Virus record (IMG/VR): IMGVR_UViG_3300010153_000053
Coordinates: 1 to 31,104 of that record
Source of the DNA: a virus
DNA length: 31,104 nt
Strand: one strand, 5' to 3'
A program made the position numbers and the translations under genes. Shown one piece after another: positions 9,001 through 31,104 of the stretch; position 1 is the stretch's first letter, and the number at the start of each line of letters is the position of its first letter. Under the pieces are notes generated by a model. It saw nothing but the letters and a program-made list of their open reading frames with translations. It did no database searches and was not told where the DNA came from.

Positions 9001-12000
9001 AATGGGATGCTATCTCTAGGGTTAGTTGTGTCTAATTCACCTGCACCATTATCAAACGCATTCCACACTTGTGATTCATTCAACACACCTCTACTCTTAG
9101 CGAATAGACCTTCGACGGCATGAGGGTTATTGTATGACATATTAGCCCATACTGTATCTCCGTCACGAAGTCCACCTTGTGCATACGGATTTATCCATGT
9201 AGCGTTTAACACAGCATCTTTATCTTCATAATCACCAATCCATGTGGCTAACTTGATAGTACCACTGCCGGGTAATGAAGGAACACTGGCTGTCATGTTA
9301 ATTGTTTGAACACCGGATGCATTGGCACTTTCTACTGTACTAACAATTCCTATTCTTCGTATCTTGTCAACAGTGTCATCATTGTAGTAATAAAGTGTGT
9401 CACCTTTCTTTACATTCATACCGTGTAGGTCATTGACATTCTTACCACTAGCCCCGTCTACTGTAATAGCAGATGATGACATTGCGGTTATAGTAACGTC
9501 AGTGATGTTGAGACTGTTTTTTAATTCACGATAGTATTGAGAACCATCACTAACTATCGCACTTACAGAAGTACCGAGTATAGTTCTACGCTTACTTGTA
9601 AGTGTTATATCTATTCCATCAGGTAAACCATGACCGTACAATTCAGTACCGTCACTTATATTGCCTGTGATACCTCCACCAACTGTAATGGTAGTTGATG
9701 AAACCGCCGTAATTTCACCTCTATTCGTACCATTTGCTATAAATATAGAATCTCCTACTGTAAAAATATCATTTGGTGTACCAGCAGATGCAGTCATTGC
9801 ACCAGTGTGACTATTAGAATAGCCACTTCCTAGTGCGTTAGTAATTGTAATACCGTATGATACAACAGGGTATGTGCTACCCGAAGATTGCAACACTAGT
9901 GTTATGCTATTTTTAGGCGTAGCGACACTGTTTATTGTTTTAATATGACCATGATATTGATATTTGTAAATTGTACCATTATCATTGTATTGTACTTCAT
10001 AGCCTAAATCACCAGTAGCAGAAGGTGCATCAGCAAGTGTATCATATCCTAGATTTGGAAACTTAACGAAGTCATCAGCACTTAGTGTAACGGTTATGGC
10101 TTTATCATTATACGCACTTAGTTTTGCAACAGTAGCAGACAACACCTTACCAGTAGCACGTTTACTATCTATTCTTGCAGCATGTGGATTACTTTCAGGT
10201 CCAGCCTTAAACTCAACCGCACTAACATATTGACGTAACCCATAGTCTACATTTCCACCTTGTGTCTTAACACTTGCAGCATCATAATAGTATTCATCTC
10301 TATTTTCATAATCTGATGAAGGGGTTAAAATATCTGACGATATAGCCCTTACACTATCGTCTACTACTGGACCACCAATAAATACACTAACACCGGGTTG
10401 TAAAAACTCTGTAAACTTTTCAGTCATGTTATACAAAGAATTGTTAACTAAACCAATTTGTAAATATCCATCACTAGAAGGATTATTTCTATACCAAGCC
10501 CAATCTCCACTATTTAAAAATACTTTTCTATATCTTAATTGTGTATCTATATCTTGAAAAGTAGATGCAGACGTTGTTGCTGCTGGAAAAATACCTATAT
10601 CATTGACATACAGTTTTAGGTTAGTTGCATCCCATTTTATTACAGAAGTAGAAGGTACGTGTGTATTATTAGAAATAGCAGTAGAATATGCAGAGTGTGC
10701 TTCTCTATCAGCAAGTTCATTTTCGCTTTTTTGCCTTCTACCAACTGGACTAGGATTGTACGTGTGTGCGGTATGTGTCGCATCTACATGTATTTTAAAA
10801 GCGTTATTTGGTCCTACTGAATCGTGGAAAAATTGTTCTGCAAATACAGGTATTTCTGCAAGTGCTCTAGTACTAGCGTATTGAGTACCTAGTTGGTAAT
10901 CATGTTGCACATCATTCATAGTTTGATGCATTCTATCGTTTACAGTAGTACCATTTTCTAAGTCAGAGTTTTCACCAAATCCTGATTCGTTATATATTGT
11001 AAAATTACCATTTATAGTTACAGTACCTGATGTTGGACCTTTCATATAACCCAGCGCATTTAGCAATTTTGCAATAGATAAATACTCACTACCGTTATTA
11101 GAAATAAAATCTCCTGAACCTAACGTTGCTGCTGCAAATACAAACGTAGTGCCTGTTTTACTAGTGTATTTAGCACTACTACCATCTTGTAAGTGTATTC
11201 TACCATACCTAGGAAATCCATATGTGCCCCAACTTGCTAAGTCTTCGCTTTCATTATTTAAGGGTTTAATGTGTAATGTACCTGTGTCATTATTAGGTAC
11301 TACTAGTTTAGTAGCAGTTACAGCATACGACCTGCGTGTAGAGTATGCTTCGTGTGCTAACATACTGCGCTGGAATACTGGTCTAGTATCCATAGCGCCT
11401 TGGCCCGGACCACCAAGTGTAACGGTGACAACAGGCGCGTTAGGCTCTATTTCCTTGACTATATGTGAGTCAGGGCTACCCTTACCAGTGAAATCAATTG
11501 AACGGGATATTAGACTGTCCCCTACACCTATGCAACTTAGTGTAGTGTAACCACCTTCATCCCCTACGCTTTCTTCAATCGACCTGACTTTTGCACGACT
11601 CATTAAGTAAAGTATAGTTGCTCTATTAAACCTAGTAGACAAATTAACATTAGCAAGTTGCATACTTCTTCTTCGGTCAGTAGGTTGAATGAAGATTCTG
11701 AAATCAGCATCATTCGTATCTGCTAAGATATGGTTGTCTATTATATCGTATGTTTCATGTATAGGTGATGAAGAAGACACAGTTCCAGTATCAAACTGCC
11801 CAGCAGAACCGCTATCCAACACTACATCAGGCGCTAGTCTAGAATAACTACCTTTATCAATCAAGGTTTTAGTTTGGTCTATTTTGTTTAGATACAGCCT
11901 ATTGAATGCAGAATTATGTAGACCGCTTGTACTCACAGATTCAATTATGGCTTGCGGTGTACCGTTTTGTATAGAGTCTGCATTATTTCTTGGAGTATAA

Positions 12001-14258
12001 TTAGCAGGTGTTAACGTTTCATCAACTTCTGTATCGGCAGAATATCCTTCCGAAGTGTCACCTACTAAACCGTGTTCTTGTACTACTGGACTATCGATTC
12101 CTAAATCAGATGCATACACATCTATGTATCCGCCGGGCGCATGTAGTGTCATACCTGAACCAATTGCATGGATTATAGAATCGTAAACATACTCTGCACC
12201 GCTTACTAATGTATCAGATGAAGGTACAGTTTTCTCTACCATTAGTAGAGGTTGTACAGTACCACTCATACTTGCACCAGTTAAATCAATCGCACTGTAA
12301 TGTATCTCTACAAATGGAGAAAGTGATGGAGTCAAGGCTGCTAATCTAGGTACGTGAAGTATAGCGACTCTACTTTCTTTAGAAGGTGTGACATGATAAT
12401 CTCTAATGTTACTATCGTGATGAGTTTCATCGTTATCCGCATCGTACTTGTTATATTGCGGTATTGGACCTTTTAGAGCAAATGGGGTATAATCAAAATC
12501 AGGACCGCCTATTGCAATCAGTTTTCTTTTACCAGCAGGTGGACTACTAGTGCCGTTGTAAGAATTGAATGCTACTGTTATTGTACTGGAACTAACAACA
12601 TTGTCTATTACTACATCATTGAAATCTCTATACACATCTACTAAACTATTTACAGCGACTTGTTTTTCTATTCCTTTATGCATATCGCTATACATCACGT
12701 CAACAATATCTGCGTTACCGTTACCTTGTTGGTCTATTATTTCATCAATAGCCTTTGGTAACATGCGTAAGAAAGTGTGTCCTTCAACATGATTCTTAAT
12801 GTGTCTACCGCTATGTCCTATTTGGAAATCTTCGCTCAGAGTAGTAGGCCACACTACTGCAAATGGATTATTTGCATCAGATGTGGTTGTAGCAATAGTA
12901 CTAGAATAAACAAATCCATGGTTTTCAAAATCACTTTCATCGATTATCATTTGCCCTGTTCTATCTATAATCTGAGAAGTATAATGAGGCGGTTGATATG
13001 GTTTAGATGTTCCACTATCAATCAATAAGTCTGCACCAACTACAACGAAGTGATTATCTACATTAGCACTTCTAGAAGTATTCAGAACACCTATTAATCC
13101 GTTATTACTATTACTTGTATTAATAAAATCTAAATGGATACTAGATACAGTTAATGTAGGGTTTGTATTTTCTAGATTATTTATAGAATGTAATCTTAAT
13201 CTTTCAGGAGGTTTTTGATTAGGTTTACTTGTTGAAGGCGTTATACCATCAGGATTAACTAATATATTGTATGGTACATGAGATATACTTCTAACAACAG
13301 TTGAGCCTGAGGAAGAATCTAACACCTCGTAATTACCTGAACTGTACGGTGAAGAAGTAAAATCAATAGTACCAGTAGTTACTGTATTGCCCGTAAGTTT
13401 TGATGCGAGTAACTGAGCATCTGTTTTTGTCATAGTTAATACTGATAACCCACTACTACTTGTGTGTGCACTGTAAGTAAAAACATCTTCAATAGGAGCG
13501 ATAGGCTCTTCAAATCTGTATAGAAGTAAAGTGTCACTATCCGATAACGGGGAGTTACCTTCTATCATTGAAGTCTTGAATGATGCATTAAGATGAATGC
13601 CTTCCATCGTACCTCTAAACTTACCACCTTTACCTCCGATGTATGTTTGCTTGGTAGAGGGCTTTAGCGCTAAGTCTCTGTCTTTGATAGATTGCCTTAC
13701 AACTAACTCCCCGTTAATGTATAGTTCTATGGCTGTGGTTCTTACCGTCGCTATTACATGAATCAAAGGTCTATGGTTTTTGTTTAGTTCAGTCGCATCG
13801 TCTCTGCTACTAACGAATCTGTTGTACGAATCTTGTAGACCTTGGTACTCAATATGTGGATATACAGTACCTTCGTATCTATCTGTTGCTAAGGTTGCTG
13901 TGGTTAGATAGTATCTTTCTTCACCACCTTCACCTTCCATAAATACCTCAAAAGATGCAGGGCCGGGTGTGTCTACATGACCGAGTGAAAGTTTGTATTG
14001 ACCTTCTTTCTCTATTATTGTACCGCCGCAATCAGGCATTACCCACGCTTCTATTGTTAGATTCTTATTGAAAATACCCGATGTTGCTACGCTATCACGT
14101 GTAGATAATGGCGCATTCTCGGATAGGATAACTCGTACATCGTCAGTTCCTCTTGTAGTTCTATGTCCTAATTCGCTAAAGTCACCTTCGGGAACTATAA
14201 TACTGTCAGTGATACCATTGAAAAAGAAGCCATGAGTCTTACGGCTAATTACTGTCAT
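1..14258 (-). CDS. Giant tail tip/receptor-binding fibre-like protein (C-terminus outside window)
   Basis: One reading frame starts at the ATG at 14258-14256 and shows no stop before base 1, giving at least 4752 residues. The start follows a GGGGGAAG ribosome binding site and lies 19 bases after the preceding stop. Residues about 10-250 read as a LamG/concanavalin-A-like domain: an LTIEAWVMP strand at 67-75, YINGELV at 180-186, an IGGKGGKFRGTMEG strand near 207-220 and LLLYRF at 244-249. The rest is rich in Gly, Ser, Thr, Asn, His and Trp with few Cys, as in beta-structured adhesins. Parts near 9270-9780 look like small beta-barrels with a GDxI/L motif. No transmembrane segment or signal peptide is seen. 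Its place as last gene after the tape measure and distal tail genes fits a tail tip or host-binding fibre. Fusion with a tail hub (Tal-like) protein is possible. No enzymatic domain was recognised. Confidence 0.85.
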   Translation of the reverse strand, partial: MTVISRKTHGFFFNGITDSIIVPEGDFSELGHRTTRGTDDVRVILSENAPLSTRDSVATSGIFNKNLTIEAWVMPDCGGTIIEKEGQYKLSLGHVDTPGPASFEVFMEGEGGEERYYLTTATLATDRYEGTVYPHIEYQGLQDSYNRFVSSRDDATELNKNHRPLIHVIATVRTTAIELYINGELVVRQSIKDRDLALKPSTKQTYIGGKGGKFRGTMEGIHLNASFKTSMIEGNSPLSDSDTLLLYRFEEPIAPIEDVFTYSAHTSSSGLSVLTMTKTDAQLLASKLTGNTVTTGTIDFTSSPYSSGNYEVLDSSSGSTVVRSISHVPYNILVNPDGITPSTSKPNQKPPERLRLHSINNLENTNPTLTVSSIHLDFINTSNSNNGLIGVLNTSRSANVDNHFVVVGADLLIDSGTSKPYQPPHYTSQIIDRTGQMIIDESDFENHGFVYSSTIATTTSDANNPFAVVWPTTLSEDFQIGHSGRHIKNHVEGHTFLRMLPKAIDEIIDQQGNGNADIVDVMYSDMHKGIEKQVAVNSLVDVYRDFNDVVIDNVVSSSTITVAFNSYNGTSSPPAGKRKLIAIGGPDFDYTPFALKGPIPQYNKYDADNDETHHDSNIRDYHVTPSKESRVAILHVPRLAALTPSLSPFVEIHYSAIDLTGASMSGTVQPLLMVEKTVPSSDTLVSGAEYVYDSIIHAIGSGMTLHAPGGYIDVYASDLGIDSPVVQEHGLVGDTSEGYSADTEVDETLTPANYTPRNNADSIQNGTPQAIIESVSTSGLHNSAFNRLYLNKIDQTKTLIDKGSYSRLAPDVVLDSGSAGQFDTGTVSSSSPIHETYDIIDNHILADTNDADFRIFIQPTDRRRSMQLANVNLSTRFNRATILYLMSRAKVRSIEESVGDEGGYTTLSCIGVGDSLISRSIDFTGKGSPDSHIVKEIEPNAPVVTVTLGGPGQGAMDTRPVFQRSMLAHEAYSTRRSYAVTATKLVVPNNDTGTLHIKPLNNESEDLASWGTYGFPRYGRIHLQDGSSAKYTSKTGTTFVFAAATLGSGDFISNNGSEYLSIAKLLNALGYMKGPTSGTVTINGNFTIYNESGFGENSDLENGTTVNDRMHQTMNDVQHDYQLGTQYASTRALAEIPVFAEQFFHDSVGPNNAFKIHVDATHTAHTYNPSPVGRRQKSENELADREAHSAYSTAISNNTHVPSTSVIKWDATNLKLYVNDIGIFPAATTSASTFQDIDTQLRYRKVFLNSGDWAWYRNNPSSDGYLQIGLVNNSLYNMTEKFTEFLQPGVSVFIGGPVVDDSVRAISSDILTPSSDYENRDEYYYDAASVKTQGGNVDYGLRQYVSAVEFKAGPESNPHAARIDSKRATGKVLSATVAKLSAYNDKAITVTLSADDFVKFPNLGYDTLADAPSATGDLGYEVQYNDNGTIYKYQYHGHIKTINSVATPKNSITLVLQSSGSTYPVVSYGITITNALGSGYSNSHTGAMTASAGTPNDIFTVGDSIFIANGTNRGEITAVSSTTITVGGGITGNISDGTELYGHGLPDGIDITLTSKRRTILGTSVSAIVSDGSQYYRELKNSLNITDVTITAMSSSAITVDGASGKNVNDLHGMNVKKGDTLYYYNDDTVDKIRRIGIVSTVESANASGVQTINMTASVPSLPGSGTIKLATWIGDYEDKDAVLNATWINPYAQGGLRDGDTVWANMSYNNPHAVEGLFAKSRGVLNESQVWNAFDNGAGELDTTNPRDSIPLENFLIGNTCLETARNYVQHVNRTVEENYLALGLTSAQAPVVAYIDPYLSTDEHARVLLYNVAHDKEFIAFQDIHMQVQTSSQATQIGWPKEVVESGDTSRTELHKVNAAYNGSGPSPWTTQIDVTNGFLSQNPYIRSTQQSKYIESAYAHDLANRHTEDLLDSTTYGDTTAVLSSSNVRLPTDGRKIEGARLYGKAHGHHVHTGYSYGGEVSGLSTGYSLTPRTNDSVVLFKIANPLHSFSRIPNNNVSVYVEELSSLRTDTTGCSLRDPSTFFDTPDGTRVIPAFLCLKGIRNTTLDLSSHGESRLQHLPQWKDMDFIRRLTIDLGVVSQKDSVVNTLAGAEEIVRLVNQHAALTARVQTGSAHDPAPFWDVDNGDRGTHMGYIRAHIGREVQDLNGNVGYTIVLHSTVPGASGRNFCAWLDNSNGQTSYQPQFLVGHGGRWRNFWALPDEREGENMHPAPMPLNKHGRPFAPITTLQQYITSSNSGEDVISVADYDDNAVMRAVSDSISGKGHNTINTESLDIKGSSSSLIKGLRTGTNAIGRINFGGLVASGVPGWSPHAGKWGCGEQNSDSYTKRYGTLSTTTYSSYIPTKDISSDVVGNEPIYGFRFKNNIGADSGVRFIYKKIGDAFANSNTSLPNTIDDEVCVFFDDRDVAQGGFTIGKHVQGSGDITGRMEIASTTTIDGSSVDITTTEHSWLGGKWRGVPSPDCTILVDDIVLSGTKLTITHKVPFTTSFGSDKLGYYGFPKENGVIHISGYKETSSPAAIANVGYTASYTYRDGDVFYGIQGITSTQLSTFNANKQISSSANWTCLLTDEIMAAVTAAAINAGEEINTEDGLTFDCTNMYAADGKTLGEWGVSPNAIKIRSYDTKNKIKPLNKSFTATLHQDQGIKAAHLEFGEIEKAVRPSGTADWTFGTSRAVTDTLIDDSSRNVDCGYVPYTLLQINTVAKGSNANTATPVLVDSQNVPVDINNWSEGLRGLQFTRSCGDHILPKIDNPHVIIDVSESTSFGLRAKLTQRAFHFIIPRYRPSPTPSLVSAPERKRIWISPTKSIVATAKMTTSSDVTTLEWVADTATENWPTAEGSIDLLTSLYASTDNTREFDGLRSIGSVFSEPIVYFRGGKSSKDHSVPLFFGGGFSGVTLDVNDGTQNDYSTFYTHPYSTGPTGVTGLQNANEISTSYAMLDGNAMFAFFPGAALCNQHRGSITPPAFNQQNILAPDLSKGGVTYSAGEIKAKPVPLVLRFAHPTARYEDHADGTDSKTTYLIFGPGQAFPFTQEVADADSGNAANTKEPFPGRVIVSGSTWASIPLDESIANSRHVFPNHIVNEKYNFMPPSKVYYDATAGFHWRAMVNWESPAGYCWKGKFSQRPEHGRHYGQQFNDDTPHDVTGTAQIGYDLTHIHPKMHTPTIGFGITMAADTVWHMDGGFHPGGSWLDNQITFNPPHAGKSAARVLSSNWERANQIHPTAFRTSGVLTGRILDYIGNGSEAVATADAKMEYIVVDATRCQNGEELATVLGAAINAFPGAGALKSLGGTHMPSMGNAMRQDRYGWIPLAGTSDYDHTTDAGNYVETPSSSSQTTLEQLPTSGWIRLHQGTNTRFACYHSREVLADSSNWKVRFYLAPNRINGLNLLEAPETWEKYIDDDGTSFTEAISSSYTLYVWSKAGTMRFNNENVSTRDHMTQVHFSGIVDAVDRTKPIGAIGWHGERYSYLNSLKINTTITKNTSSTTTSGYAAGLGAYHEMLNFSPYGTAGTVMNVHSNIPVVAPMQGSPESTPTIDGIGNALGTHLVKSGFYSKFNLGSGSSEGWDTYTYNFNDTDETGNANQWVAPTNYTTTLPKELTTPQGLYSSAFLVVSYECESSLIAKYDRDGITANGDWLQVIGQGSNPITYAGTTQWDERFHGQDRFVAPANAGPNVEALIVEDTIVPVGTPSNGNWADTLFSGGSGTYFFSATPTDLKLQNATPGLNKTGDLLFDLDHSVGSALLQTDDAERNTSADKYAAAHSSGFPINYWMGDVNALQMYQDSAAKNFSVENIVWKRMDGGNLSMPAINARGLGAVPWMTRVKSNTAYQTGEKIYGNVRFSFETTNSAMMPILQAQELAHPELMRKHPYKIGNVLNIPNEEIQFQSITVRDETGQVHKIEGGSPLGTIIRGFRIPENRGVKGNAPALANSGKIPNLKVQLPDPNSIPGNIVVRSGFDPIQAYQHETIGTGGMIHPDMGESHIGHLFDNSVASPRQAPTYENHNWERINPVTFDSELGAWNDNSPLQTSYELHDRTLFFHVTKMGHTHTHRYPTVYTHTSGVENDVVSVTAWNSSTSILTIDTTHGSNILNANVFDAGFGTKEDTRKFLRVYNPTTDEGAVCTYIAQSDNTLDVVGDVNFATFMAGQTVTNLKVVPSYYIPAGSNRFFAARRLRDHAEVSGNSPDMANTLYYVSGQTIGYDAYSKPVLTPMPFPRMGHHFVTPTMPMLPGHWAHPAYQSLYRRHLIDYQMTNGFVDSSLVADNTTSTNKKAAVATAIGTGGITENIHAMDAEINFSGVNAAPSPPSDIHGGAFTLMFESGVKYDGYGVLASSDGTSTTLAATVNKAGGHSIVLEAASEYTQSRHFPDPAEVGAYQIVIQPNVFHNQLVGYHNNSGAALTSQQINTVIGIKMDSDGNVDRTKGGMTLVLAKATQADVRGCEVFINEAILDISNDQGSQFTNIPPLMLYNHVGVQLTESPAFTRKGFPYSTMFSDATPAHTLHIPWWSILHKNAIKHNGSAVSEATNYRKLSQYSPEDYYMFMRSTFGSIGSQLTINGYTSLYFDIYDKYNKSISLNPKCTVVSFNTSGTIVVDNANTFPMYPYYKQEVQYTGKNGTIYSKELTSVSGDTAATINIPKTLTLGAKSGADSFWDNIYDDAILTLTHSYNTLPAGEILTNKRKSVFANILPDIINGNQDTYSNHVPDAFLCMWHPNLGRPNTYFSDNTSRSWKGNAVNKAAYNSLPEHFETIHYHD

Positions 14259-16613: not shown

Positions 16614-16957
16614 AAACCCCCCTGCATTGCCTCCGCCAGTTCATCGGGCTTTGGTAATAGAGAGGCTATTTGTTGACCGACATATGCGTTTAAGTTCATC
16701 ATGTCGTCTACGGTAAGTTCCGGGTTTGTTCTTACGACCCAGTTTGAAAATGCGTAACGCCAGTATCCTTGAAGGTTTAGCGATATATCATCACCATTCA
16801 TCTGAAACATACTTTGTGCTGCTTGTTGTACATCAAAGAAAGTTAATTCTCTAATCCATACTTCCATCATTAAATCAGGATTTTCTTTGTCTACACGGAT
16901 TTCGTGTCGTTGTTCATTCTTCTTCGCCAGTAAGTTCTGTTTGTCTACTATCGTCAT
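16595..16957 (-). CDS. Tail assembly chaperone G
   Basis: A 120-residue protein with ATG at 16957, preceded by GGAAGTGA with a 6-base spacer. The start lies 44 bases inside the end of the upstream SAP-domain gene. The body is a compact alpha-helical chaperone-like fold: EVWIRELTFFDVQQAAQ, a YWRYAFSNWVV helix and an LTVDDMMNLNAYVGQQIASLLP helix. The end, QGGFTKASN, contains the GGG GGT TTT codons of the frameshift site. Size, position between tail tube and tape measure, and the frameshift into a second frame all match the lambda gpG/gpGT class. Sequence similarity to lambda G was not tested. Confidence 0.87.
   Translation of the reverse strand: MTIVDKQNLLAKKNEQRHEIRVDKENPDLMMEVWIRELTFFDVQQAAQSMFQMNGDDISLNLQGYWRYAFSNWVVRTNPELTVDDMMNLNAYVGQQIASLLPKPDELAEAMQGGFTKASN
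16613..16619 (-). promoter_or_regulatory. Programmed -1 ribosomal frameshift slippery site GGGTTTT
   Basis: On the coding strand the codons CAG GGG GGT TTT ACG occur six codons before the end of gene G (the last zero-frame codons are TTT ACG AAA GCG AGC AAC TGA). The heptamer G GGT TTT is a canonical X XXY YYZ slippery site. A -1 slip continues as TAC GAA AGC and stays open into the T frame to 16320. The run G6T4 lies at 16622-16613. No downstream stem-loop or pseudoknot was worked out. Confidence 0.88.
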
Positions 16958-17660
16958 CTGTTGTCACTTCCTCGGTTGCAGCCTCTTGCGAGGGGGCATC
17001 CGGTGTTACATCAGCAGACTCTTGCGAATGGGCTTCTGTTACACCTTGTGTCGGTTGCTCGACAATACCTGCGTCGTCGTGTCGTAGCCTTAACACTACC
17101 TCAGATTTAGTACCACGAATGGTAATTCCGCGTGCTTTGCATTCTTTTTGGAGTTCTCTTACGGTGAAAGAATTGTAATCAATTTCCCCACCAAACGGAT
17201 TATTAACTTCGGGGACTATCATCATTTCAAGATTTTCTTCAACATTTTGAACAGGCTTGTCAAAAGTAATTCCCACTGCATCTTCGATAGCATTTTCAAC
17301 AACTTCAGCAACTTCTTCCACCTTCTCTTGTATCTCTTCTACCACGTCTTCTACTACTTCGCTTATTGCGCTCCTAGCAGCCTCTACCCATGAAGGTTCT
17401 TCTTCCTCTATTTTCTCGATGATTGTTTTAACAGGTGTGTCTTCTATCTCTCTAGCGATAGGTTCAAACACAGTTTCTTCGGTAATTGTCTTACCTTCAT
17501 TAATCATTCTTAGAACCATAGAGTCTACTACGTTTCTAGAATTAGTTTTGAACAACTCTTGGTTGTACGGTATATCGACACTATCGATTAACCAATAAAC
17601 ATACTTTTCGTGAGAATTACGAGAGTAGAACTGAACTCTTTTTACAGCAGTTGGTAACAC
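16914..17660 (-). CDS. SAP-domain acidic protein in the tail module
   Basis: A 248-residue protein starting at GTG 17660, preceded by GAGGTGA with a 4-base spacer that includes the tail tube stop codon. Residues 1-85 form a mixed alpha/beta region (RVQFYSRNSHEKYVYWLID). Residues about 84-130 are a strongly acidic amphipathic helix with repeated VVE/EVVE steps, likely a coiled coil. Residues 163-196 match a SAP motif (FTVRELQKECKARGI, then GTKSEVVLRLR), a fold that usually binds DNA. The last 50 residues are a low-complexity E/Q/T/D tail. The end overlaps gene G by 44 bases. A nucleic-acid-binding type domain between tail tube and chaperones is unexpected. Binding to protein instead of DNA is possible, and no function is assigned. 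Confidence 0.8.
   Translation of the reverse strand: MLPTAVKRVQFYSRNSHEKYVYWLIDSVDIPYNQELFKTNSRNVVDSMVLRMINEGKTITEETVFEPIAREIEDTPVKTIIEKIEEEEPSWVEAARSAISEVVEDVVEEIQEKVEEVAEVVENAIEDAVGITFDKPVQNVEENLEMMIVPEVNNPFGGEIDYNSFTVRELQKECKARGITIRGTKSEVVLRLRHDDAGIVEQPTQGVTEAHSQESADVTPDAPSQEAATEEVTTDDDSRQTELTGEEE
16964..16971 (-). promoter_or_regulatory. Ribosome binding site GGAAGTGA of chaperone G
   Basis: GGAAGTGA followed by CAACAG and ATG 16957. The same octamer precedes the starts at 23404 and 26289. It lies inside the coding sequence of the SAP-domain gene. Confidence 0.6.
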
Positions 17661-19759: not shown

Positions 19760-20206
19760 TGGGATTAACTCTGCAAAGATAACAACTTCTATCTGAAAGG
19801 TCATTCTGAACAGTTTTTTACTTCTATCTGATAAATCGGTACGTGTTTTGTACACAAGCCTATCAAAGTTCACACCATCACCTTTTCTTTTAAGATGTAT
19901 GCATCTTCTTAATTCATTTTCCATCTTTTTCAATTGCTCTCTACTTCTTGTAGTACGCATATCTACTGTAATGTTGATACGTGTAGTGACAAAATCGTAC
20001 AGCATTTCAGGTAATTCTTCGTTATGTGCTGTTTCAAAAACCATGACATAATCCGTTCTATCAAGGTCAAGTCTCTTTCCACGTTCCGGTGAAACGTCTG
20101 CTATATCAATAATGACGGGTTTGAAATTGTTAGTATTACCCCTAGTCCAGTTATTTTTTAGTACACCAAGTACTACATCAATACCTTCATCAAATGTCGC
20201 TACCAT
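19757..20206 (-). CDS. Tail terminator/tail completion protein candidate
   Basis: A 149-residue protein with ATG at 20206 and an AAGGAG site 7 bases upstream. It overlaps the preceding gene by 7 bases. The order helix (VATFDEGIDVVLGVLKNNW), beta strand (FKPVIIDIADV), then YVMVFETA, RINITVDMRTTRSREQLKKMENELRRCIH and a long C-terminal strand pair (KKLFRMTFQIEVVIFAEL) is typical of the alpha/beta tail terminator fold that caps the tail tube. Position just before the tube gene supports this. It has no signal or membrane segment. The assignment is by size, predicted fold and synteny. Confidence 0.7.
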   Translation of the reverse strand: MVATFDEGIDVVLGVLKNNWTRGNTNNFKPVIIDIADVSPERGKRLDLDRTDYVMVFETAHNEELPEMLYDFVTTRINITVDMRTTRSREQLKKMENELRRCIHLKRKGDGVNFDRLVYKTRTDLSDRSKKLFRMTFQIEVVIFAELIP

Positions 20207-20532
20207 TCTGCAAACTCCTTTTTACGTTTTTCGCGTTCATGAGCATCAAAATCAGGTACTAATTTACCGCCATCATTCTTGAGTTTATGTTCCATGAGTC
20301 CCGGTGATTCAGTCATCATACGTCTATTGACTCTATCTTTCAATGCTACTTCTTGTTCAACAGTCATATTTTCTGATTCTAGTTCTTTTTCAGAACGTTC
20401 TACACCTTCTCTATATTCCGATGGCCCTTCTGTAATAGCCTTCTGCAAATCTGCTTGGTATTCTTTTTTACTTAATTCTAAAGATATAGTTTCTTTCCAC
20501 TCATCGTAGATTATCTTTTTTGTATCACTCAA
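20200..20532 (-). CDS. Small helical neck-region protein, TTG start
   Basis: A 110-residue protein starting with TTG at 20532-20530, because a strong GAGGTGG site (20545-20539) stands 6 bases upstream and the first in-frame ATG is at residue 56. It overlaps the adaptor gene by 8 bases and the tail terminator gene by 7. The protein is highly charged and helical, with Lys/Glu-rich heptad-like stretches (residues 1-75), and ends REKRKKEFAEW. No known domain was recognised. Its place between adaptor and terminator suggests a head-tail joining or head-tail chaperone role, but this is only positional. Confidence 0.7.
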   Translation of the reverse strand: MSDTKKIIYDEWKETISLELSKKEYQADLQKAITEGPSEYREGVERSEKELESENMTVEQEVALKDRVNRRMMTESPGLMEHKLKNDGGKLVPDFDAHEREKRKKEFAEW

Positions 20533-24287: not shown

Positions 24288-25427
24288 TTACTTTAGGTTA
24301 CGAATGCTCCCTTGTGCTCCAAAGAAAGTAGTCCATACTTCACCCATGGTTCGGTATAGTCCTTCTTGGCCTAGTCTGTTAATTGCGAATGGGTCACCAG
24401 TCTCGATACCGGACTCAAAGTACTGAGTTGGTATTGCTGTGCTAAAGTGTAGGTAATCTGTATCTAGATAGTAGATTTTTGATAGGTTACCATCGTCATC
24501 CATATCTTTTGTTGGTATGATAGGTACTCCGTTGTATGTTGCAACTATGAAACCTGCTTCCATACCCGGTACACCTTTTACACCGTTGTAGGTTGGTGTT
24601 ACTCTCTTCTCTTCCATGAATCTCTGTTGTGATTGTAGAAGTTGTTGTAGTCTCATCAATGTGTCATATCCAGTTAGCATAACTTTTGGATTTCCACCAC
24701 GAACCCATATCTTTTGGAATAGGTCATCGATTTGGTCTAGAGATAGAACTCTATCTGCTCCAGCAGTACCAAGGTTGGTTTCTGCATCTGACCATGTGTT
24801 AGCACTCCTGTCAATACTGTATAAATCTAAGTCTGCCGCAGCAGTAACCCAGTTTGTGTCTTGACCCATAGTAGCATCGCTTGCTGTGATTCTATCTAAT
24901 GACTCGAAGTTGTTACCAGCAAGTTCGTCTGTATCTACAAGAAGCATCTTGTTGACCATTTCTGCGTGATGTTTACCCATTTCTTCTTTAAGAACTGAGC
25001 GAATATCTCCCATTCCATCATCCTTATCTGCAAGGAAGATTGCTGTTTCAGACATATCGAATGTGTGTGCGATTGTCTTTGGTTTTGCAGCAATGTGCTG
25101 GAAGGTAGGTTTTACAGTCTCAGGTAATGTTGCGTTCTCTGCAACTCCACCGTGTACAACACCAGCATTTGGTCTGCCAGTGATAACGCGCCATCCGCTT
25201 CTGTCCCATGGTTTCTTAGGTAGTATTGAGAAAGCATTGAACTCTTGGTTCAATTGTGACCATACTTTGCGACCGTAGATTGCTTGGTATGTTCCGCCTG
25301 TTGTGGACAGCATAGGGCTGTCAGCCTTGAGTAATTCACTACCAGTGTATGAGTAACCCATTGCGTTACCTGCACCATAGTAGTATCTTTCCATATCTGT
25401 TATTGTTCGTACGTAATCTCTTGCCAT
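24288..25427 (-). CDS. HK97-fold major capsid protein
   Basis: A 379-residue protein with ATG at 25427 after a strong GGAGG and an A-rich spacer. The N-terminal arm has the YGRKVWSQLNQEFNAFSILP stretch at about 51-70. This is followed by GWRVITGRP, a GGVAENATLPETVKP loop and AKPKTIAHTFDMSE, an order typical of the E-loop and P-domain of HK97-like capsid proteins. A spine helix follows (EEMGKHHAEMVNKMLL) and then A-domain segments (NPKVMLTGYDTLMRLQQLLQ; GFIVATYNGVPIIPT). It lies directly after the protease/scaffold gene. No cleavage site or delta domain is evident at its own N-terminus, consistent with a separate scaffold. This is the most abundant virion protein expected from the window. Confidence 0.93.
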   Translation of the reverse strand: MARDYVRTITDMERYYYGAGNAMGYSYTGSELLKADSPMLSTTGGTYQAIYGRKVWSQLNQEFNAFSILPKKPWDRSGWRVITGRPNAGVVHGGVAENATLPETVKPTFQHIAAKPKTIAHTFDMSETAIFLADKDDGMGDIRSVLKEEMGKHHAEMVNKMLLVDTDELAGNNFESLDRITASDATMGQDTNWVTAAADLDLYSIDRSANTWSDAETNLGTAGADRVLSLDQIDDLFQKIWVRGGNPKVMLTGYDTLMRLQQLLQSQQRFMEEKRVTPTYNGVKGVPGMEAGFIVATYNGVPIIPTKDMDDDGNLSKIYYLDTDYLHFSTAIPTQYFESGIETGDPFAINRLGQEGLYRTMGEVWTTFFGAQGSIRNLK

Positions 25428-25464: not shown

Positions 25465-26289
25465 TCACTCCGGGGTGAAGGCTTTTGATGCTAGGTGATG
25501 AACCTCATCCCAAGACATCTTAGCCATATCCTCCGTAGAAGGTACTACGACTGATGTAGTATCTACTGATTTAGCGATTGCTTCTCCGCTTACTGCTGGA
25601 GTACTGATTGACTCAATGCGCTCTGATAATGCACTGATTGCTTTTGTTATCTCGTCTAACGGACCGCGAGCATCGTATGCTGCTGCTTCTGCTTTTGCGA
25701 TTTCTGCTGTACGTTCTGTTGCAAAACGATTTGCAAAAGTTGATTCTAGAGAGCCACGGAACTCTTGTTCCATTGCTGCTGCTTTGTATACTTCATATGC
25801 AGACTCGATGTCTGAATCTGATAATGTTGCTGGATTAATGAAATCGGATTTCTTTACTGTTCCAGTAGTTTTACCTAAAGCACCTGTTGATGGGTTTCCA
25901 CCTTCTTGTACTCGACCTTTTGCTTGTCCAGTCCTTTGTGTTTCATATGCAGCCAGTTCTTCGGGTGTAGAACCTAGATTTGCTTTTTCTAGGTTATCAA
26001 AGTGAACACGTGCCTCAGCAGTGTCAACTCCAGCACTCTTTAGAGTGTCTTCCATCCAGTTAAGATAGTCAGATGTTATAACATCAGAATATTCTGACTT
26101 TTCTACGTCAGCATCTTCTTTCTTTTTGTCATCTTTCATATCCTCTTTCTTGCCGTCTTTTTTATCAGCAATAGCCTCTTTCAATGCAGGTGGCATTTCG
26201 CCTTTCTCCATATTATCAAGTCGACCTTCTAAGCGACTTAGTACGTCACTCATTTGCTTCATCATATCATCATCATTTTCTGTTGTCAT
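25465..26289 (-). CDS. Nested scaffold protein from internal start (predicted)
   Basis: In frame with the protease gene at its residue 182 there is an ATG (26289) preceded by GGAAGTGA and a 5-base spacer. This gives a separate 274-residue product that holds only the scaffold part. The same octamer and spacing serve the starts at 23404 and 16957. It begins MTTENDDDMMKQMSDVLSRL, is rich in Glu/Lys (a DKKDGKKEDMKDDKKKED stretch) and ends in an Ala-rich helical region. The layout matches lambda C/Nu3, where the scaffold is the C-terminal part of the protease gene translated alone. Prediction from sequence only. Confidence 0.65.
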   Translation of the reverse strand: MTTENDDDMMKQMSDVLSRLEGRLDNMEKGEMPPALKEAIADKKDGKKEDMKDDKKKEDADVEKSEYSDVITSDYLNWMEDTLKSAGVDTAEARVHFDNLEKANLGSTPEELAAYETQRTGQAKGRVQEGGNPSTGALGKTTGTVKKSDFINPATLSDSDIESAYEVYKAAAMEQEFRGSLESTFANRFATERTAEIAKAEAAAYDARGPLDEITKAISALSERIESISTPAVSGEAIAKSVDTTSVVVPSTEDMAKMSWDEVHHLASKAFTPE

Positions 26290-26832
26290 ATTTGTCACTT
26301 CCGTGTTTTTATCTTGTTTTAAAATACTAAATGTTGCTTCGGGGTTAATGCCTTTTTCACAAATGGTTATCTCATGTAATTCAAGTTTACTTATTTCTTG
26401 GTAATCTCCTCGTTTAGCATCAGATTTTCTGACTCTTTTAAACGCTTGACCACCGATACTGAATCCTCTGAGAACGCCTTTTCTGATTTCTGCTGAAACC
26501 TCTTTTGCTTTCTCAATGTCGTTACGGAGTTGTACTACTACAAACATCCCAACATCATCGACTTCGCTTTTCCACAACCTCCCTTCGCTATCAGTGTAAT
26601 TCGGTACTACATCTCCAATCTGTATATTACTGTGAGCCAATTGAACGTTTCTGTATGACGGATTTTCCATGAATTTCCGAAATGCGTGTTTCAATGCCTC
26701 CTTTGTTATTACGTCGCCTTGCTTGTCTACAACTTCCACACTGGCATAACCAGCGACGATGAGGTCATTAGCACCCTTGAGGATGGTAATTGGTTCATCG
26801 CCGTATCTGAATTGCTGTTGACTACCGAGCAC
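25465..26832 (-). CDS. HK97-type prohead protease fused to scaffold region
   Basis: A 455-residue protein. Residues about 20-172 form the protease domain: GYASVEVVDKQGDVIT, LAHSN with candidate catalytic His67, LRGFSIGG with candidate Ser125, and KLELHEITICEKGINPEATF with Glu154 as candidate third member. This is the layout of the HK97/S78 prohead protease family. Residues 175-455 are charged, helical and Gln/Glu/Lys-rich with a coiled-coil start (MKQMSDVLSRLEGRLDNMEK), typical of a scaffold. The start is GTG at 26832 after AGGGG. No ATG is in frame upstream before a stop, so the start is moderately sure. The protein cleaves scaffold and capsid precursors inside the prohead. The 48 bases between it and the large upstream gene hold only this ribosome site. 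Confidence 0.9.
   Translation of the reverse strand: MLGSQQQFRYGDEPITILKGANDLIVAGYASVEVVDKQGDVITKEALKHAFRKFMENPSYRNVQLAHSNIQIGDVVPNYTDSEGRLWKSEVDDVGMFVVVQLRNDIEKAKEVSAEIRKGVLRGFSIGGQAFKRVRKSDAKRGDYQEISKLELHEITICEKGINPEATFSILKQDKNTEVTNMTTENDDDMMKQMSDVLSRLEGRLDNMEKGEMPPALKEAIADKKDGKKEDMKDDKKKEDADVEKSEYSDVITSDYLNWMEDTLKSAGVDTAEARVHFDNLEKANLGSTPEELAAYETQRTGQAKGRVQEGGNPSTGALGKTTGTVKKSDFINPATLSDSDIESAYEVYKAAAMEQEFRGSLESTFANRFATERTAEIAKAEAAAYDARGPLDEITKAISALSERIESISTPAVSGEAIAKSVDTTSVVVPSTEDMAKMSWDEVHHLASKAFTPE
26295..26302 (-). promoter_or_regulatory. Internal ribosome binding site GGAAGTGA for scaffold
   Basis: GGAAGTGA, then CAAAT, then ATG at 26289 inside the protease/scaffold gene. It lies at the junction between the protease domain and the scaffold region. 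Confidence 0.6.
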
Positions 26833-26880: not shown

Positions 26881-29800
26881 CTAATCAAGGCTCTTTTCAT
26901 CAAAAACGCTAGACTGCGAAGCATTTTGTTTCTTTTTCTGTTTTCTACCCGGATAATCTTCGGGTTTCTCCATGTCCTCAGTGGGTCGATTCTTCATATC
27001 CCAATCAGGTAAAGATTGTTCTGCGGTCAGTCTTGTTGGTCCTCTAGGGCTTTCTACACCTCCACCAACATCTATTCCCAATCCTCTCCCTGCAAGGTTA
27101 CTATGGCCTTTTTCTATTTTATCAAGTATCTTTTCCATAACTAATAATGCTTTATACATTTCTTTTTGTTTCGGTTTTAACAAAATATTCTTATCTGTTT
27201 TAGGTTTTAATATCCCAGCGCTCTCTTGTTCTACCTGTTCTTCATCCATTTCTGCTTCTATTTGAGATTCTTCTTTCAACAGGTCTTGTAAATGAGAACT
27301 CCAATAAGGTTCTAGACTTTTTGCTAATCTTATAGAATAATCAGAATTACTTAAACTACCTATGGCAGATACCGGATTGACAGCCTTACCTTCTACAATT
27401 TCATACTTGACTAAATCCTCAGGTAGATGAATAATAAAATGTCCATTGTCTATTTCCGTAGCAAATGTAACGTGATAATCAACTTCACTCTTAGCCAATA
27501 TTACCCACTTAGGATGTTTTTCTTCTCCTTTCATGTATGTAGACTTTGCATCACGAAGCATAATCTTATCAGATTCTTTGCCTAAGTCTTTGACCGCAGC
27601 CTCTAACCCCACTTCGTCAGTAATTCTAACATCTGATGGACTAGGAATAAAGACAGGATGATAACTTTCAAATTGTCCTCTTAATATCTTAATTCTCTCT
27701 CTTGTGGTTAATTCAGTAACATCATCATCGTCATAATGAAGTATGTCATTAACATAGAACTCGCCATCTTTCATCATACCATCTATAACATAGTCTTTCT
27801 TACAAACTAATTTTAACGAATCTTTAACATCATCATCTGCTGGTATTTTTTCACCTTTTTCATCGAATACAACTATTCTGTTATTTTTCTTTACAACCTT
27901 GCATCTTGTACCGTCAACTAATGTTGAGACTACCCATTCACCAGTAAACCCTCTTAATTGATTTAAGTCATCCAAATCAAATATACGATGTAAAGGGTCG
28001 ATTAAAGGCACTTCTTTGGGTAAATCGGCTTTACCAATTTGTTGAGGATTGTCAGCATATGATGTACCAGTAATAGGATTAGTTTGATTCCAAGCAGGTT
28101 GTGTCTGTAATATTCTAGGATTTGTAATATCCACATTACCTATGACATTATCATATGTACCTTCACCAAACACATGACGCCATGCTGCTTGAGGCATACT
28201 AGGGTATGCAGAAGTTTGTGGATTGCTACCCACAACAGGTCTTCCATCTCTTTCAAACTCAAAACCAACTGTTGGCTCTGCCATATGACCGTGTTCTCTA
28301 GGCCAATTAGCATGAAGTAATACTCCATCTTGAGATTTTAGTGGCTTCAAAGGTGTAGTAGTGAAATCTATTGTTGGTTTTTGTTCTAGTTCAAAAGGTG
28401 TAAATTGATTGTTTTTTCCTTTGTCAGCAGATTGCTCATCGTATGTTATTATCTGACTTGCTATATCTTTATACGTAGCGTGTTGATTATTGATATTTTT
28501 TAGTGGTTTACCTTTTTTATTCATTTCTCTTGTATGTAATGGGTTTTTTGATTCATAATGAGATAATCCATAATGTTCTAGTTCGTTTCTATCTAATACT
28601 GAACGTTTGCTACTAGGTCTTACTCTTCTTCTTAATTGACTTAAAGTTTGATAAGATGACATAGATTGAGCAGCAGTATTAGGTCTACTCATATTTTCAT
28701 ATAATGTTCTATCATCTCTTTTTTTGGGTATAGAGTTTCTATAATCTTCTAATCTATTATCCATGTGACCATGTAAATCCGTAATACCATCTCTACTCAA
28801 AGCATCCATGTGTTCACTTCCTTGAGGCATAATCTCTTGACCCCATGTTGCAATTTGTCCTAATGATGCTGCTCTAACTGGACCATTTAAAGAAGACAAA
28901 TAATCTCTAACATAATCTTGATGTGCTTCATCATTAGGTAAACCTAGAACTTCTAATGCTTTATCGACTTTCATAGTTGGATTCAATTCGTACATCGTTC
29001 TATCACCTTGATGCATCATGTCGAATATAGTTGCTACATTTTTATGAAACGAGCCACCTTCCATTTCTTCAATGGATTTCCTATCACCCTCACCTATGTG
29101 ATATCCCATAGTTGTAATATTATGATTGGGGTCATGAATAAGACCTCTGCCAGCGTCTTCCCATAATCTTTGAGAATTATGCATGAACTTAATTGGGTCA
29201 CTTGGGTCAAAAGCACTTGGGTCATGTTCTAACACCATTGGAAGTAAAACGGTTTTAGCATACTCTGCTTGTGCTTGTTTATCTGCTAATCTTTTTTTAT
29301 AGAAATCTATGGAATGCTGTTCTCCTTTACCACCGGGCTTCAAGTCTTTCATCTCATTAGGATATAGTAAATTATTCAGTTCTGCAACTCTATCTTCTGC
29401 TCTTTTAATTTCAAGATTTTTAAAATCTTGTGGATTCATATTAGTTCTTTTTTCATCCATATATTGTTGAAGTTCTTCACCTTTTAAGTTTCTAACACGG
29501 TCTAATTCCTCTTCTAAGAAAAGTAAATCTTCACCTTCTACACCACGTCCTTCACTTTCTGCACTACCTGCATCACCCAGCATTCTTAGATATTCAGGAT
29601 GTGATACACCCATAGAGGTTCTTTTATCAGGGTCAGCAAATAATTCTTCATACGATGTTACTCCCCAGCCGGGATGTGAGTCCCATGGTGGATATCTACC
29701 GTTATCAGCAAGAAGGCGGTGATGCATCGCACCTGAATCCATCAAAGAAGTATCTCCCCTTTGTGCTGAACCTACACGTGTAAATGGGTTATCTGAATGA

Positions 29801-31104
29801 AGTTTCTGCATAGCCCCATCTCTAGATATATTACGTTTGATATCATACTTTTCAGAGTCAACATCAAAATTAGTTTCTATGTTTGGAGGACGTGTCATAA
29901 TATTAGGGAAACTAGTAGATTCTGTATCACTTGAATTATTGTGATTATTTCTCAATATTCTACCTCTAGCATTAGGACGTGATTTATCAGTATGTGCCAT
30001 TATTTCAAGTGCACTCCCACTACCAACAACTCCAGTATCCCTTTGTATATTATGTAAATTACCAAACATACCAGTATTACCACTATTAGGGATAATGCTA
30101 TACTGAGTTTGACCTTTTCCTTCCTCATCAGTCTGTAAATAACCTAAAGGAGAAGATTTACCACCATCAGTAGAAAGATGATTATGAAGAATATCAAGAT
30201 AACTGGTATGTGTTTTTCCAATACCCGGACTATGTGAATATGCATCTTCTTCCATATGTGCCCAACCTTTTAGGTTTCCATCTTTATCTTCAAAATAATG
30301 AGACTTCTCTTCGGGTGTTAGTTTTTTATCATCAGGCTTTGGACCGTTATTACCTATCCTTGTAACAGACAGACCTCTTCTAATTGGTTTTTCTTCTGTT
30401 GCTAATCCTTTTTGAAACTGTATATTATCCATAACTTGTTGCATAATTTCTTTATCTAACAAAGGCTCATTATAAGCATTAAATATTGAATGATTATCAA
30501 GTTCATTTAATTTTTTATCATAACCGACTAAAGACTGTAACCCTTCTTCTGTTAATTTAACATCACTAGTTTTATGTATTCTACTAGTAATTATATCTTT
30601 CAAACTCTTACCCTTTTTTCTTTCCCTCTTAATAGCAGCAACATCAGAATTAGAAAAAGAAAATAAGTTATTAATATCATCTATATCAACATCACCTTCA
30701 AACATTTTAACGATATTCTTTCGTAATCTTTCATGTGCTGAATCTTCTATCATACTAGTTTCACCAGTATCAGGGTCTGTATATTCATAAGGCTCTAAAT
30801 AAACAGAGTTCAATGCTTTCTTTACTGCACCTTCCATACCACTAGTTGTATTATCATCTGAGGTTTCTAAGTATTGATGTGTGTTAGGTCCAAATTGATG
30901 TGGCATTCTCGTCCAGTGGTGTAGTTCAGCGTTTGTTCTTCTTTCCTTGTTTAATTTTAATCTAGCCATCGGCATGATATGCCCATCGGATAATTTGATG
31001 TCTTGATGTTCAGGATGGTCTGTTCCATGTTCATGTATATGCTGTAAGATTTTAGTTCTGTCTTGTGGAGCAACAAACTCTAATCCGTAAGCCCATGTTT
31101 CCCA
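26881..31104 (-). CDS. Very large virion protein with degenerate DNA-ligase-like domain (5' end outside window)
   Basis: The frame ends at TAG 26881 and is open to base 31104. The 43 codons upstream of the first visible ATG (30975) still read as protein (WAYGLEFVAPQDRTKILQHI), so the gene most likely starts beyond the window. At least 1407 residues are visible. Residues about 1-980 (from ATG 30975) are hydrophilic, His/Asn/Asp-rich and unrecognised, with a coiled-coil-like stretch near 500-610. Residues about 992-1192 resemble the nucleotidyltransferase domain of ATP-dependent DNA ligases. The C-terminus has a charged helix (KEMYKALLVMEKILDKIEKG) and a Lys/Gln-rich end (GRKQKKKQ). It lies just before the prohead protease, where a portal or head protein normally sits. 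It may be a portal fusion, an internal ejected protein or a packaging factor. Confidence 0.85.
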   Translation of the reverse strand, partial: WETWAYGLEFVAPQDRTKILQHIHEHGTDHPEHQDIKLSDGHIMPMARLKLNKERRTNAELHHWTRMPHQFGPNTHQYLETSDDNTTSGMEGAVKKALNSVYLEPYEYTDPDTGETSMIEDSAHERLRKNIVKMFEGDVDIDDINNLFSFSNSDVAAIKRERKKGKSLKDIITSRIHKTSDVKLTEEGLQSLVGYDKKLNELDNHSIFNAYNEPLLDKEIMQQVMDNIQFQKGLATEEKPIRRGLSVTRIGNNGPKPDDKKLTPEEKSHYFEDKDGNLKGWAHMEEDAYSHSPGIGKTHTSYLDILHNHLSTDGGKSSPLGYLQTDEEGKGQTQYSIIPNSGNTGMFGNLHNIQRDTGVVGSGSALEIMAHTDKSRPNARGRILRNNHNNSSDTESTSFPNIMTRPPNIETNFDVDSEKYDIKRNISRDGAMQKLHSDNPFTRVGSAQRGDTSLMDSGAMHHRLLADNGRYPPWDSHPGWGVTSYEELFADPDKRTSMGVSHPEYLRMLGDAGSAESEGRGVEGEDLLFLEEELDRVRNLKGEELQQYMDEKRTNMNPQDFKNLEIKRAEDRVAELNNLLYPNEMKDLKPGGKGEQHSIDFYKKRLADKQAQAEYAKTVLLPMVLEHDPSAFDPSDPIKFMHNSQRLWEDAGRGLIHDPNHNITTMGYHIGEGDRKSIEEMEGGSFHKNVATIFDMMHQGDRTMYELNPTMKVDKALEVLGLPNDEAHQDYVRDYLSSLNGPVRAASLGQIATWGQEIMPQGSEHMDALSRDGITDLHGHMDNRLEDYRNSIPKKRDDRTLYENMSRPNTAAQSMSSYQTLSQLRRRVRPSSKRSVLDRNELEHYGLSHYESKNPLHTREMNKKGKPLKNINNQHATYKDIASQIITYDEQSADKGKNNQFTPFELEQKPTIDFTTTPLKPLKSQDGVLLHANWPREHGHMAEPTVGFEFERDGRPVVGSNPQTSAYPSMPQAAWRHVFGEGTYDNVIGNVDITNPRILQTQPAWNQTNPITGTSYADNPQQIGKADLPKEVPLIDPLHRIFDLDDLNQLRGFTGEWVVSTLVDGTRCKVVKKNNRIVVFDEKGEKIPADDDVKDSLKLVCKKDYVIDGMMKDGEFYVNDILHYDDDDVTELTTRERIKILRGQFESYHPVFIPSPSDVRITDEVGLEAAVKDLGKESDKIMLRDAKSTYMKGEEKHPKWVILAKSEVDYHVTFATEIDNGHFIIHLPEDLVKYEIVEGKAVNPVSAIGSLSNSDYSIRLAKSLEPYWSSHLQDLLKEESQIEAEMDEEQVEQESAGILKPKTDKNILLKPKQKEMYKALLVMEKILDKIEKGHSNLAGRGLGIDVGGGVESPRGPTRLTAEQSLPDWDMKNRPTEDMEKPEDYPGRKQKKKQNASQSSVFDEKSLD
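27403..28002 (-). other. Degenerate ATP-dependent DNA ligase-like domain
   Basis: Numbered from ATG 30975. Motif I KxDG is L1019-V-D-G1022 with the nucleotide-binding Lys replaced by Leu, though DGTR is kept. Motif III DGE is D1065-G-M1067. Motif IIIa is clear as FYVNDIL (1073-1079), followed by ELTTRERIKIL. Motif IV is DKIMLRDAKSTY (1136-1147). Motif V is KWVILAK (1156-1162). The succession and spacing match the adenylation domain, but the key Lys and Glu are missing, so ligase activity is unlikely. Confidence 0.65.

What the first reader, a model, noticed from the sequence alone, without database searches (positions are those of the whole stretch)
27403..28002. Ligase-like domain without catalytic lysine inside a giant head-module protein
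The block holds recognisable ATP-dependent DNA ligase motifs I, III, IIIa, IV and V in order, but motif I reads LVDG instead of KxDG and motif III reads DGM instead of DGE. It is fused to about 1200 residues of unknown protein and sits directly before the prohead protease. DNA ligases normally belong to replication modules. A pseudo-ligase in a virion gene could bind DNA ends or nicks during packaging or ejection, or act as a decoy nucleotide-binding fold.
Basis: partly seen in the sequence, partly recalled or inferred. Interest (0 to 1): 0.78.

Follow-up and report, generated by a model that had tools for sequence, protein, structure and literature searches.

The report
Dead DNA-ligase domain in viral head protein
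In a large group of ocean viruses that probably infect archaea, a very large protein encoded among the capsid genes carries a DNA-ligase-shaped domain that has lost the key catalytic residues of a ligase, yet is the most strictly conserved part of the protein, so it has probably been reused, perhaps to hold DNA or a nucleotide in the virus head.

Summary
Confirmed and extended. Window 27463-28020 (- strand) encodes a nucleotidyltransferase domain of the ATP-dependent DNA-ligase type (Pfam E 8.5e-6, just under its cut-off; AlphaFold pLDDT 88; best fold matches are archaeal DNA ligases, E 5e-10). It lies near the C-terminus of a head-module protein between portal and prohead protease/capsid genes. 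The window truncates that protein; complete relatives have 1,700-2,150 residues. Among 133 distinct relatives none has lysine at the nucleophile position; the motif III and IV glutamates and first motif V lysine are also gone. Motif I Gly/Arg remain, and the loop RDxxSTYMxGExxHPKW has nine residues invariant in 133/133. dN/dS is 0.01-0.05 here against 0.05-0.43 elsewhere in the protein, so it is not decay. The domain was in all 273 magrovirus-like capsid loci with enough upstream DNA, but not in haloarchaeal, methanogen-associated or more distant relatives. In 22 of 23 long records no other ligase was detected, so published 'DNA ligase' annotations need checking. Most likely it is an exapted pseudo-ligase acting as a DNA- or nucleotide-binding module of a minor head/ejection protein. 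The dead-ligase part is well supported; virion location and ligand are inferred.

The parts
26881..31104 (-). Giant head-module protein, N-terminus cut off by the window edge (1407 codons seen)
   Evidence: near-identical complete relative in L002 5984-11269, 1762 aa
27463..28020 (-). Nucleotidyltransferase core of the pseudo-ligase domain
   Evidence: Pfam; AlphaFold; Foldseek; alignment
27904..27921 (-). Motif I LVDGTR: Leu where ligases have the catalytic Lys; Gly and Arg kept
   Evidence: 0 of 133 relatives with Lys at this position
27772..27792 (-). Motif III YVIDGMM: Glu lost
   Evidence: family-wide I/V/T/M/A, no Glu
27730..27750 (-). Motif IIIa NDILHYD: Asp invariant
   Evidence: 133/133
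27505..27555 (-). RDAKSTYMKGEEKHPKW loop between the motif IV and V positions, most conserved stretch of the family; candidate new functional site
   Evidence: D, Y, M, G, E, H, P, K, W each 133/133; first position R 130, K 3
27490..27504 (-). Motif V position VILAK: first ligase Lys lost; second position Ala here, Arg/Ala/Thr/Lys in relatives
27256..27462 (-). C-terminal extension of the domain; in most relatives an OB-like segment of about 100 aa sits between motif V and this part, absent in the window's group
26884..27108 (-). Conserved C-terminal tail (SPRGPT...LPDWDM...RPTED)
25465..26832 (-). Prohead serine protease (Peptidase_S78), next gene
   Evidence: E 2.8e-9; PHROGs
24288..25427 (-). 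HK97-type major capsid protein
   Evidence: PHROGs, tblastn 33% identity to HVTV-1 capsid protein

Best explanation
The block is a DNA ligase nucleotidyltransferase domain that lost its adenylylation chemistry in the ancestor of this virus clade and was kept under strong selection as a binding module of a minor head protein. Shown: ligase-type fold, family-wide loss of the nucleophile and of the motif III and IV glutamates, strong purifying selection, fixed place between portal and protease/capsid genes. Inferred: the protein is packaged in the head, probably near the portal; the former active-site side together with the invariant RDxxSTYMxGExxHPKW loop binds a nucleic-acid end or nick, or a nucleotide-like ligand, without chemistry, during packaging or just after ejection. 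The helical N-terminal part and the conserved C-terminal tail would anchor it. This would work like the portal-targeted DNA-binding minor head protein gp7 of phage SPP1, with snurportin-1 as precedent for a nucleotidyltransferase fold that only binds.
For: Fold: AlphaFold pLDDT 87.7, pTM 0.82; top PDB matches archaeal ATP DNA ligases, E 5e-10 to 2e-9, 119 matches at E <= 0.001. Loss: 0/133 Lys at motif I, no Glu at motif III, motif IV Glu position variable. Selection: dN/dS 0.01-0.054 in the core against 0.05-0.43 in the other parts. Context: order terminase, HNH protein, portal, three small genes, giant, S78 protease, capsid protein; domain present in 273 of 276 capsid loci with at least 5 kb upstream, exceptions HVTV-1, HCTV-1 and vir519 (loci overlap between searches). 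Profile search also meets snurportin-1 weakly, E 0.02-0.08.
Against: No direct evidence that the protein is in the virion or binds anything. The domain and the whole protein are net acidic in L049, unlike a simple DNA-binding protein. The N-terminal 1,190 residues have no fold match at E <= 0.001 among viral models. A new enzymatic activity of the invariant loop is not excluded.
Confidence: 0.5

Rival explanations
1. Purely structural exaptation: the dead ligase fold serves as a protein-protein docking domain (to portal, protease or capsid shell) and binds no nucleic acid or nucleotide.
For: Net acidic charge; conserved C-terminal tail; position between portal and protease genes; inactivated DNA polymerase F12 in poxvirus virion morphogenesis as precedent (PMC4304020).
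Against: The strongest conservation includes residues at former active-site motifs (motif I Gly/Arg, IIIa Asp) and a polar/charged loop rather than only a hydrophobic surface; surface mapping was not possible.
Confidence: 0.22
2. Injected effector: the giant protein enters the cell with the DNA and the domain acts in conflict with host defences, for example as a nucleotide sink or by masking DNA ends.
For: The positional counterpart in HVTV-1 (gp115) carries zeta-toxin and ADP-ribosyltransferase domains and in HCTV-1 a zeta-toxin domain; toxin domains occur in MuF head proteins and polyvalent phage proteins (PMC5576092, PMC5512222).
Against: No sequence homology detected between the two giant proteins; effector domains usually vary between relatives, whereas this domain is always present and extremely conserved.
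Confidence: 0.15
3. An enzyme with new chemistry: residues of the invariant loop (Asp, Glu, His, Lys) form a new active site on the old fold.
For: Nine loop positions conserved 133/133, including D, E, H, K and Y; very low dN/dS.
Against: The metal- and nucleotide-contacting residues of motifs III, IV and V are gone; no known enzyme family with this signature was found.
Confidence: 0.1
4. A functional ligase with an unusual nucleophile, or a frame/assembly error that hides the lysine.
For: A Lys one residue upstream of the canonical position occurs in 56 of 133 sequences.
Against: That Lys is absent in the window and in 77 of 133; motif III and IV glutamates and the first motif V lysine are also lost; the frame is open and repeated in many independent contigs.
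Confidence: 0.03

Closest known systems
Archaeal/eukaryotic-type ATP-dependent DNA ligases (Pfam PF01068; e.g. Thermococcus and Archaeoglobus ligases 3rr5, 4eq5, 3gde)
   Same: Nucleotidyltransferase fold, order of motifs I-IIIa-IV-V, motif I Gly and Arg, IIIa Asp, S-T-Y and Gly/Trp of the motif IV-V stretch; an OB-like segment after motif V in most relatives
   Different: Catalytic Lys, motif III and IV Glu and first motif V Lys missing; fused to a giant head-module protein; extra invariant HPKW loop; OB-like segment lost in the window's group
Snurportin-1 m3G-cap-binding domain
   Same: Nucleotidyltransferase-fold binding domain without catalysis (general knowledge; weak profile match E 0.02-0.08)
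   Different: Eukaryotic nuclear import factor; no evidence of common recent origin or of cap binding here
SPP1 gp7 / MuF minor head proteins
   Same: Gene between portal and protease/capsid genes; candidate portal-associated minor head protein (PMC5576092)
   Different: No MuF domain detected; far larger; ligase-derived domain instead
HVTV-1 gp115 / HCTV-1 gp109 (Druskaviridae)
   Same: Giant protein at the corresponding place upstream of protease and homologous capsid gene
   Different: Zeta-toxin (and in HVTV-1 ADP-ribosyltransferase) domains instead of a ligase domain; no detectable homology
Poxvirus F12, inactivated DNA polymerase used in virion morphogenesis (PMC4304020)
   Same: Dead replication enzyme reused in virus assembly
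   Different: Different enzyme, virus realm and assembly stage

Membership tests
ATP-dependent DNA ligase (active) | Nucleotidyltransferase fold of ligase type | tested here: met
   AlphaFold and Foldseek
ATP-dependent DNA ligase (active) | Catalytic Lys in motif I KxDGxR | tested here: not met
   Leu in window; 0 of 133 relatives have Lys there
ATP-dependent DNA ligase (active) | Glu in motifs III and IV | tested here: not met
ATP-dependent DNA ligase (active) | Motif V lysines (KxK) | tested here: not met
   first position L/M/V/I; second R/A/T/K mixed
ATP-dependent DNA ligase (active) | OB domain with motif VI after motif V | tested here: inconclusive
   absent in window; OB-like segment in 65 of 90 tree members, no significant database match for it
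MuF minor head protein | Phage_Mu_F domain | tested here: not met
   no Pfam match in complete giants
Virion minor head/ejection protein | Present in purified particles | not testable with these tools
   no proteomic data available
Magrovirus (order Magrovirales) | Capsid protein related to Druskaviridae, 90-110 kb genome, family B DNA polymerase | tested here: met
   relatives up to 115 kb; formal taxonomy and host not tested, reference genomes not held

The most novel reading that the evidence does not exclude
The ligase fold has been converted into a new catalytic or ligand-sensing centre in the capsid, built on the invariant RDxxSTYMxGExxHPKW loop, and is the clade's essential portal-vertex device for handling DNA ends.
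Probability: 0.12. Interest if true: 0.85.

Novelty: new variant of a known kind. Interest (0 to 1): 0.62.

Why it matters
It is a clear case of a replication enzyme that became a dead but indispensable-looking part of a tailed-virus head module, in a group of viruses abundant in the ocean. It shows which parts of the ligase fold can be kept for binding alone, gives a concrete target for structure and binding work, and suggests that 'DNA ligase' in annotations of these viruses may often point to this inactive domain: in 22 of 23 long records no other ligase family match was found. If so, statements that these viruses bring their own ligase need checking.

Tried and rejected
Active ligase: rejected on motif residues across 133 relatives. 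Chance match: rejected by profile, fold and conservation. Decaying pseudogene: rejected by dN/dS and presence in all 273 suitable loci. Homology of the giant protein to HVTV-1 gp112-gp115 or the vir519 protein by profile comparison: none. Relatives in cellular genomes: none. Relatives in named phage records: none. OB segment: no significant PDB sequence match. Looked for intermediates with the Lys in more distant capsid lineages: a distant lineage lacks the giant protein altogether. Reference magrovirus genomes ON649702 and OR863078 were not held, and two key papers were not readable.

Full report
What is there. The window is a 31,104-base virus record. Its last frame, 26881-31104 on the - strand, is open at the window edge; relatives show that about 357 N-terminal residues are missing and that complete proteins have about 1,700-2,150 residues. 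Pfam finds one family of note, DNA_ligase_A_M, E 8.5e-6 and 26.0 bits against a cut-off of 26.2. The core is encoded by 27463-28020; the motif coordinates were checked by translation.

Fold. An alignment of the window domain with 32 relatives gave an AlphaFold model with mean pLDDT 87.7 and pTM 0.82. Its best PDB matches are archaeal ATP-dependent DNA ligases (E 5e-10 to 2e-9), with 119 matches at E <= 0.001; in the viral library an unnamed 827-residue protein leads and DNA ligases and capping enzymes follow. Profile searches of PDB sequences give the same answer, more strongly for the subgroup with the OB-like segment, as does NCBIfam.

Loss of catalysis. Of 133 distinct near-complete cores none has lysine at the nucleophile position (W 54, Y 23, M 19, H 13, F 11, Q 6, L 5, I 2). 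A lysine one residue upstream is present in 56 but not in the window, so a shifted nucleophile is not conserved. The motif III Glu is gone in all, the motif IV Glu position is variable, and the first motif V Lys is L, M, V or I. Motif I Gly is kept in 133 and its Arg in 126, the IIIa Asp in 133. In the stretch RDxxSTYMxGExxHPKW the D, Y, M, G, E, H, P, K and W are identical in all 133 and the first position is R or K.

Selection and history. Between close relatives dN/dS is 0.010-0.054 in the core and 0.05-0.43 in other parts of the protein (simple pairwise estimates, two pairs saturated at synonymous sites). The domain occurs in 273 of 276 capsid-gene loci with at least 5 kb upstream, the exceptions being HVTV-1, HCTV-1 and vir519 (the loci overlap between searches, so this is not 273 independent viruses). 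A more distant capsid lineage lacks it and cellular genomes gave none. About 100 residues after motif V, OB-like by pattern only, are present in 65 of 90 tree members and absent in the window's group; the tree needs about three changes. That this segment is a ligase OB fold is inference.

Setting. In relatives the gene order is terminase, HNH-containing protein, portal, three small genes, the giant gene, S78 protease, capsid protein. The capsid protein is 32-33% identical to that of haloarchaeal Druskaviridae. All 23 long records (79-116 kb) encode a family B polymerase. This fits magroviruses as described (PMC10160649, PMC12999244, PMC10768690); host and formal taxonomy were not tested. In HVTV-1 and HCTV-1 the protein at the corresponding place has a zeta-toxin domain, with an ADP-ribosyltransferase domain in HVTV-1, but no homology to the giant protein was detected.

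Other ligases. Only one of the 23 long records has a canonical ligase (KFDG, DGEL); neither RNA_ligase nor NAD-ligase families were found in any. One record (G032) shows no PF01068 match although its capsid locus carries the domain by the family profile. The records may be incomplete and a very divergent ligase could be missed. Papers state that almost all these viruses encode a DNA ligase; whether that refers to this domain could not be checked because the reference genomes are not held.

Mechanism. Established: a ligase-derived, strongly conserved domain without the ligase catalytic residues, in a head-module protein. Inferred: packaging into the head, portal proximity and ligand binding. 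[quoted passage not shown] these are analogies, not evidence of membership. The acidic net charge speaks against non-specific DNA binding. I put the binding-module explanation at 0.5, structural docking at 0.22, injected effector at 0.15, new enzyme at 0.1. That the domain is a ligase-type fold without canonical ligase chemistry I hold at above 0.9.

Noticed in passing
window 20200-20532 (-) and 26884-27108 (-): The short motif [LVIM]PD[WF]D of the giant protein's tail recurs at the C-terminus of a small late protein in the same viruses, and apart from fragments of the giant gene was seen nowhere else in about 2.1 million residues of frames; profile support is weak (E 3-10). Perhaps a shared docking peptide.
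   Followed up: partly
window 3-14258 (-): A frame of at least 4,752 residues running off the window, with a weak concanavalin-like lectin match; perhaps a giant tail or fibre protein.
   Followed up: no
window 16914-17660 (-): A 248-residue protein in the tail region with a SAP DNA-binding domain, E 4.3e-10.
   Followed up: no
L131 8539-12480 (HVTV-1 gp115): Zeta-toxin and ADP-ribosyltransferase domains in one head-module protein of a haloarchaeal virus.
   Followed up: partly
L269 534-6353: The giant gene appears split into three frames (615, 780 and 543 aa); sequencing error or real interruption not decided.
   Followed up: no
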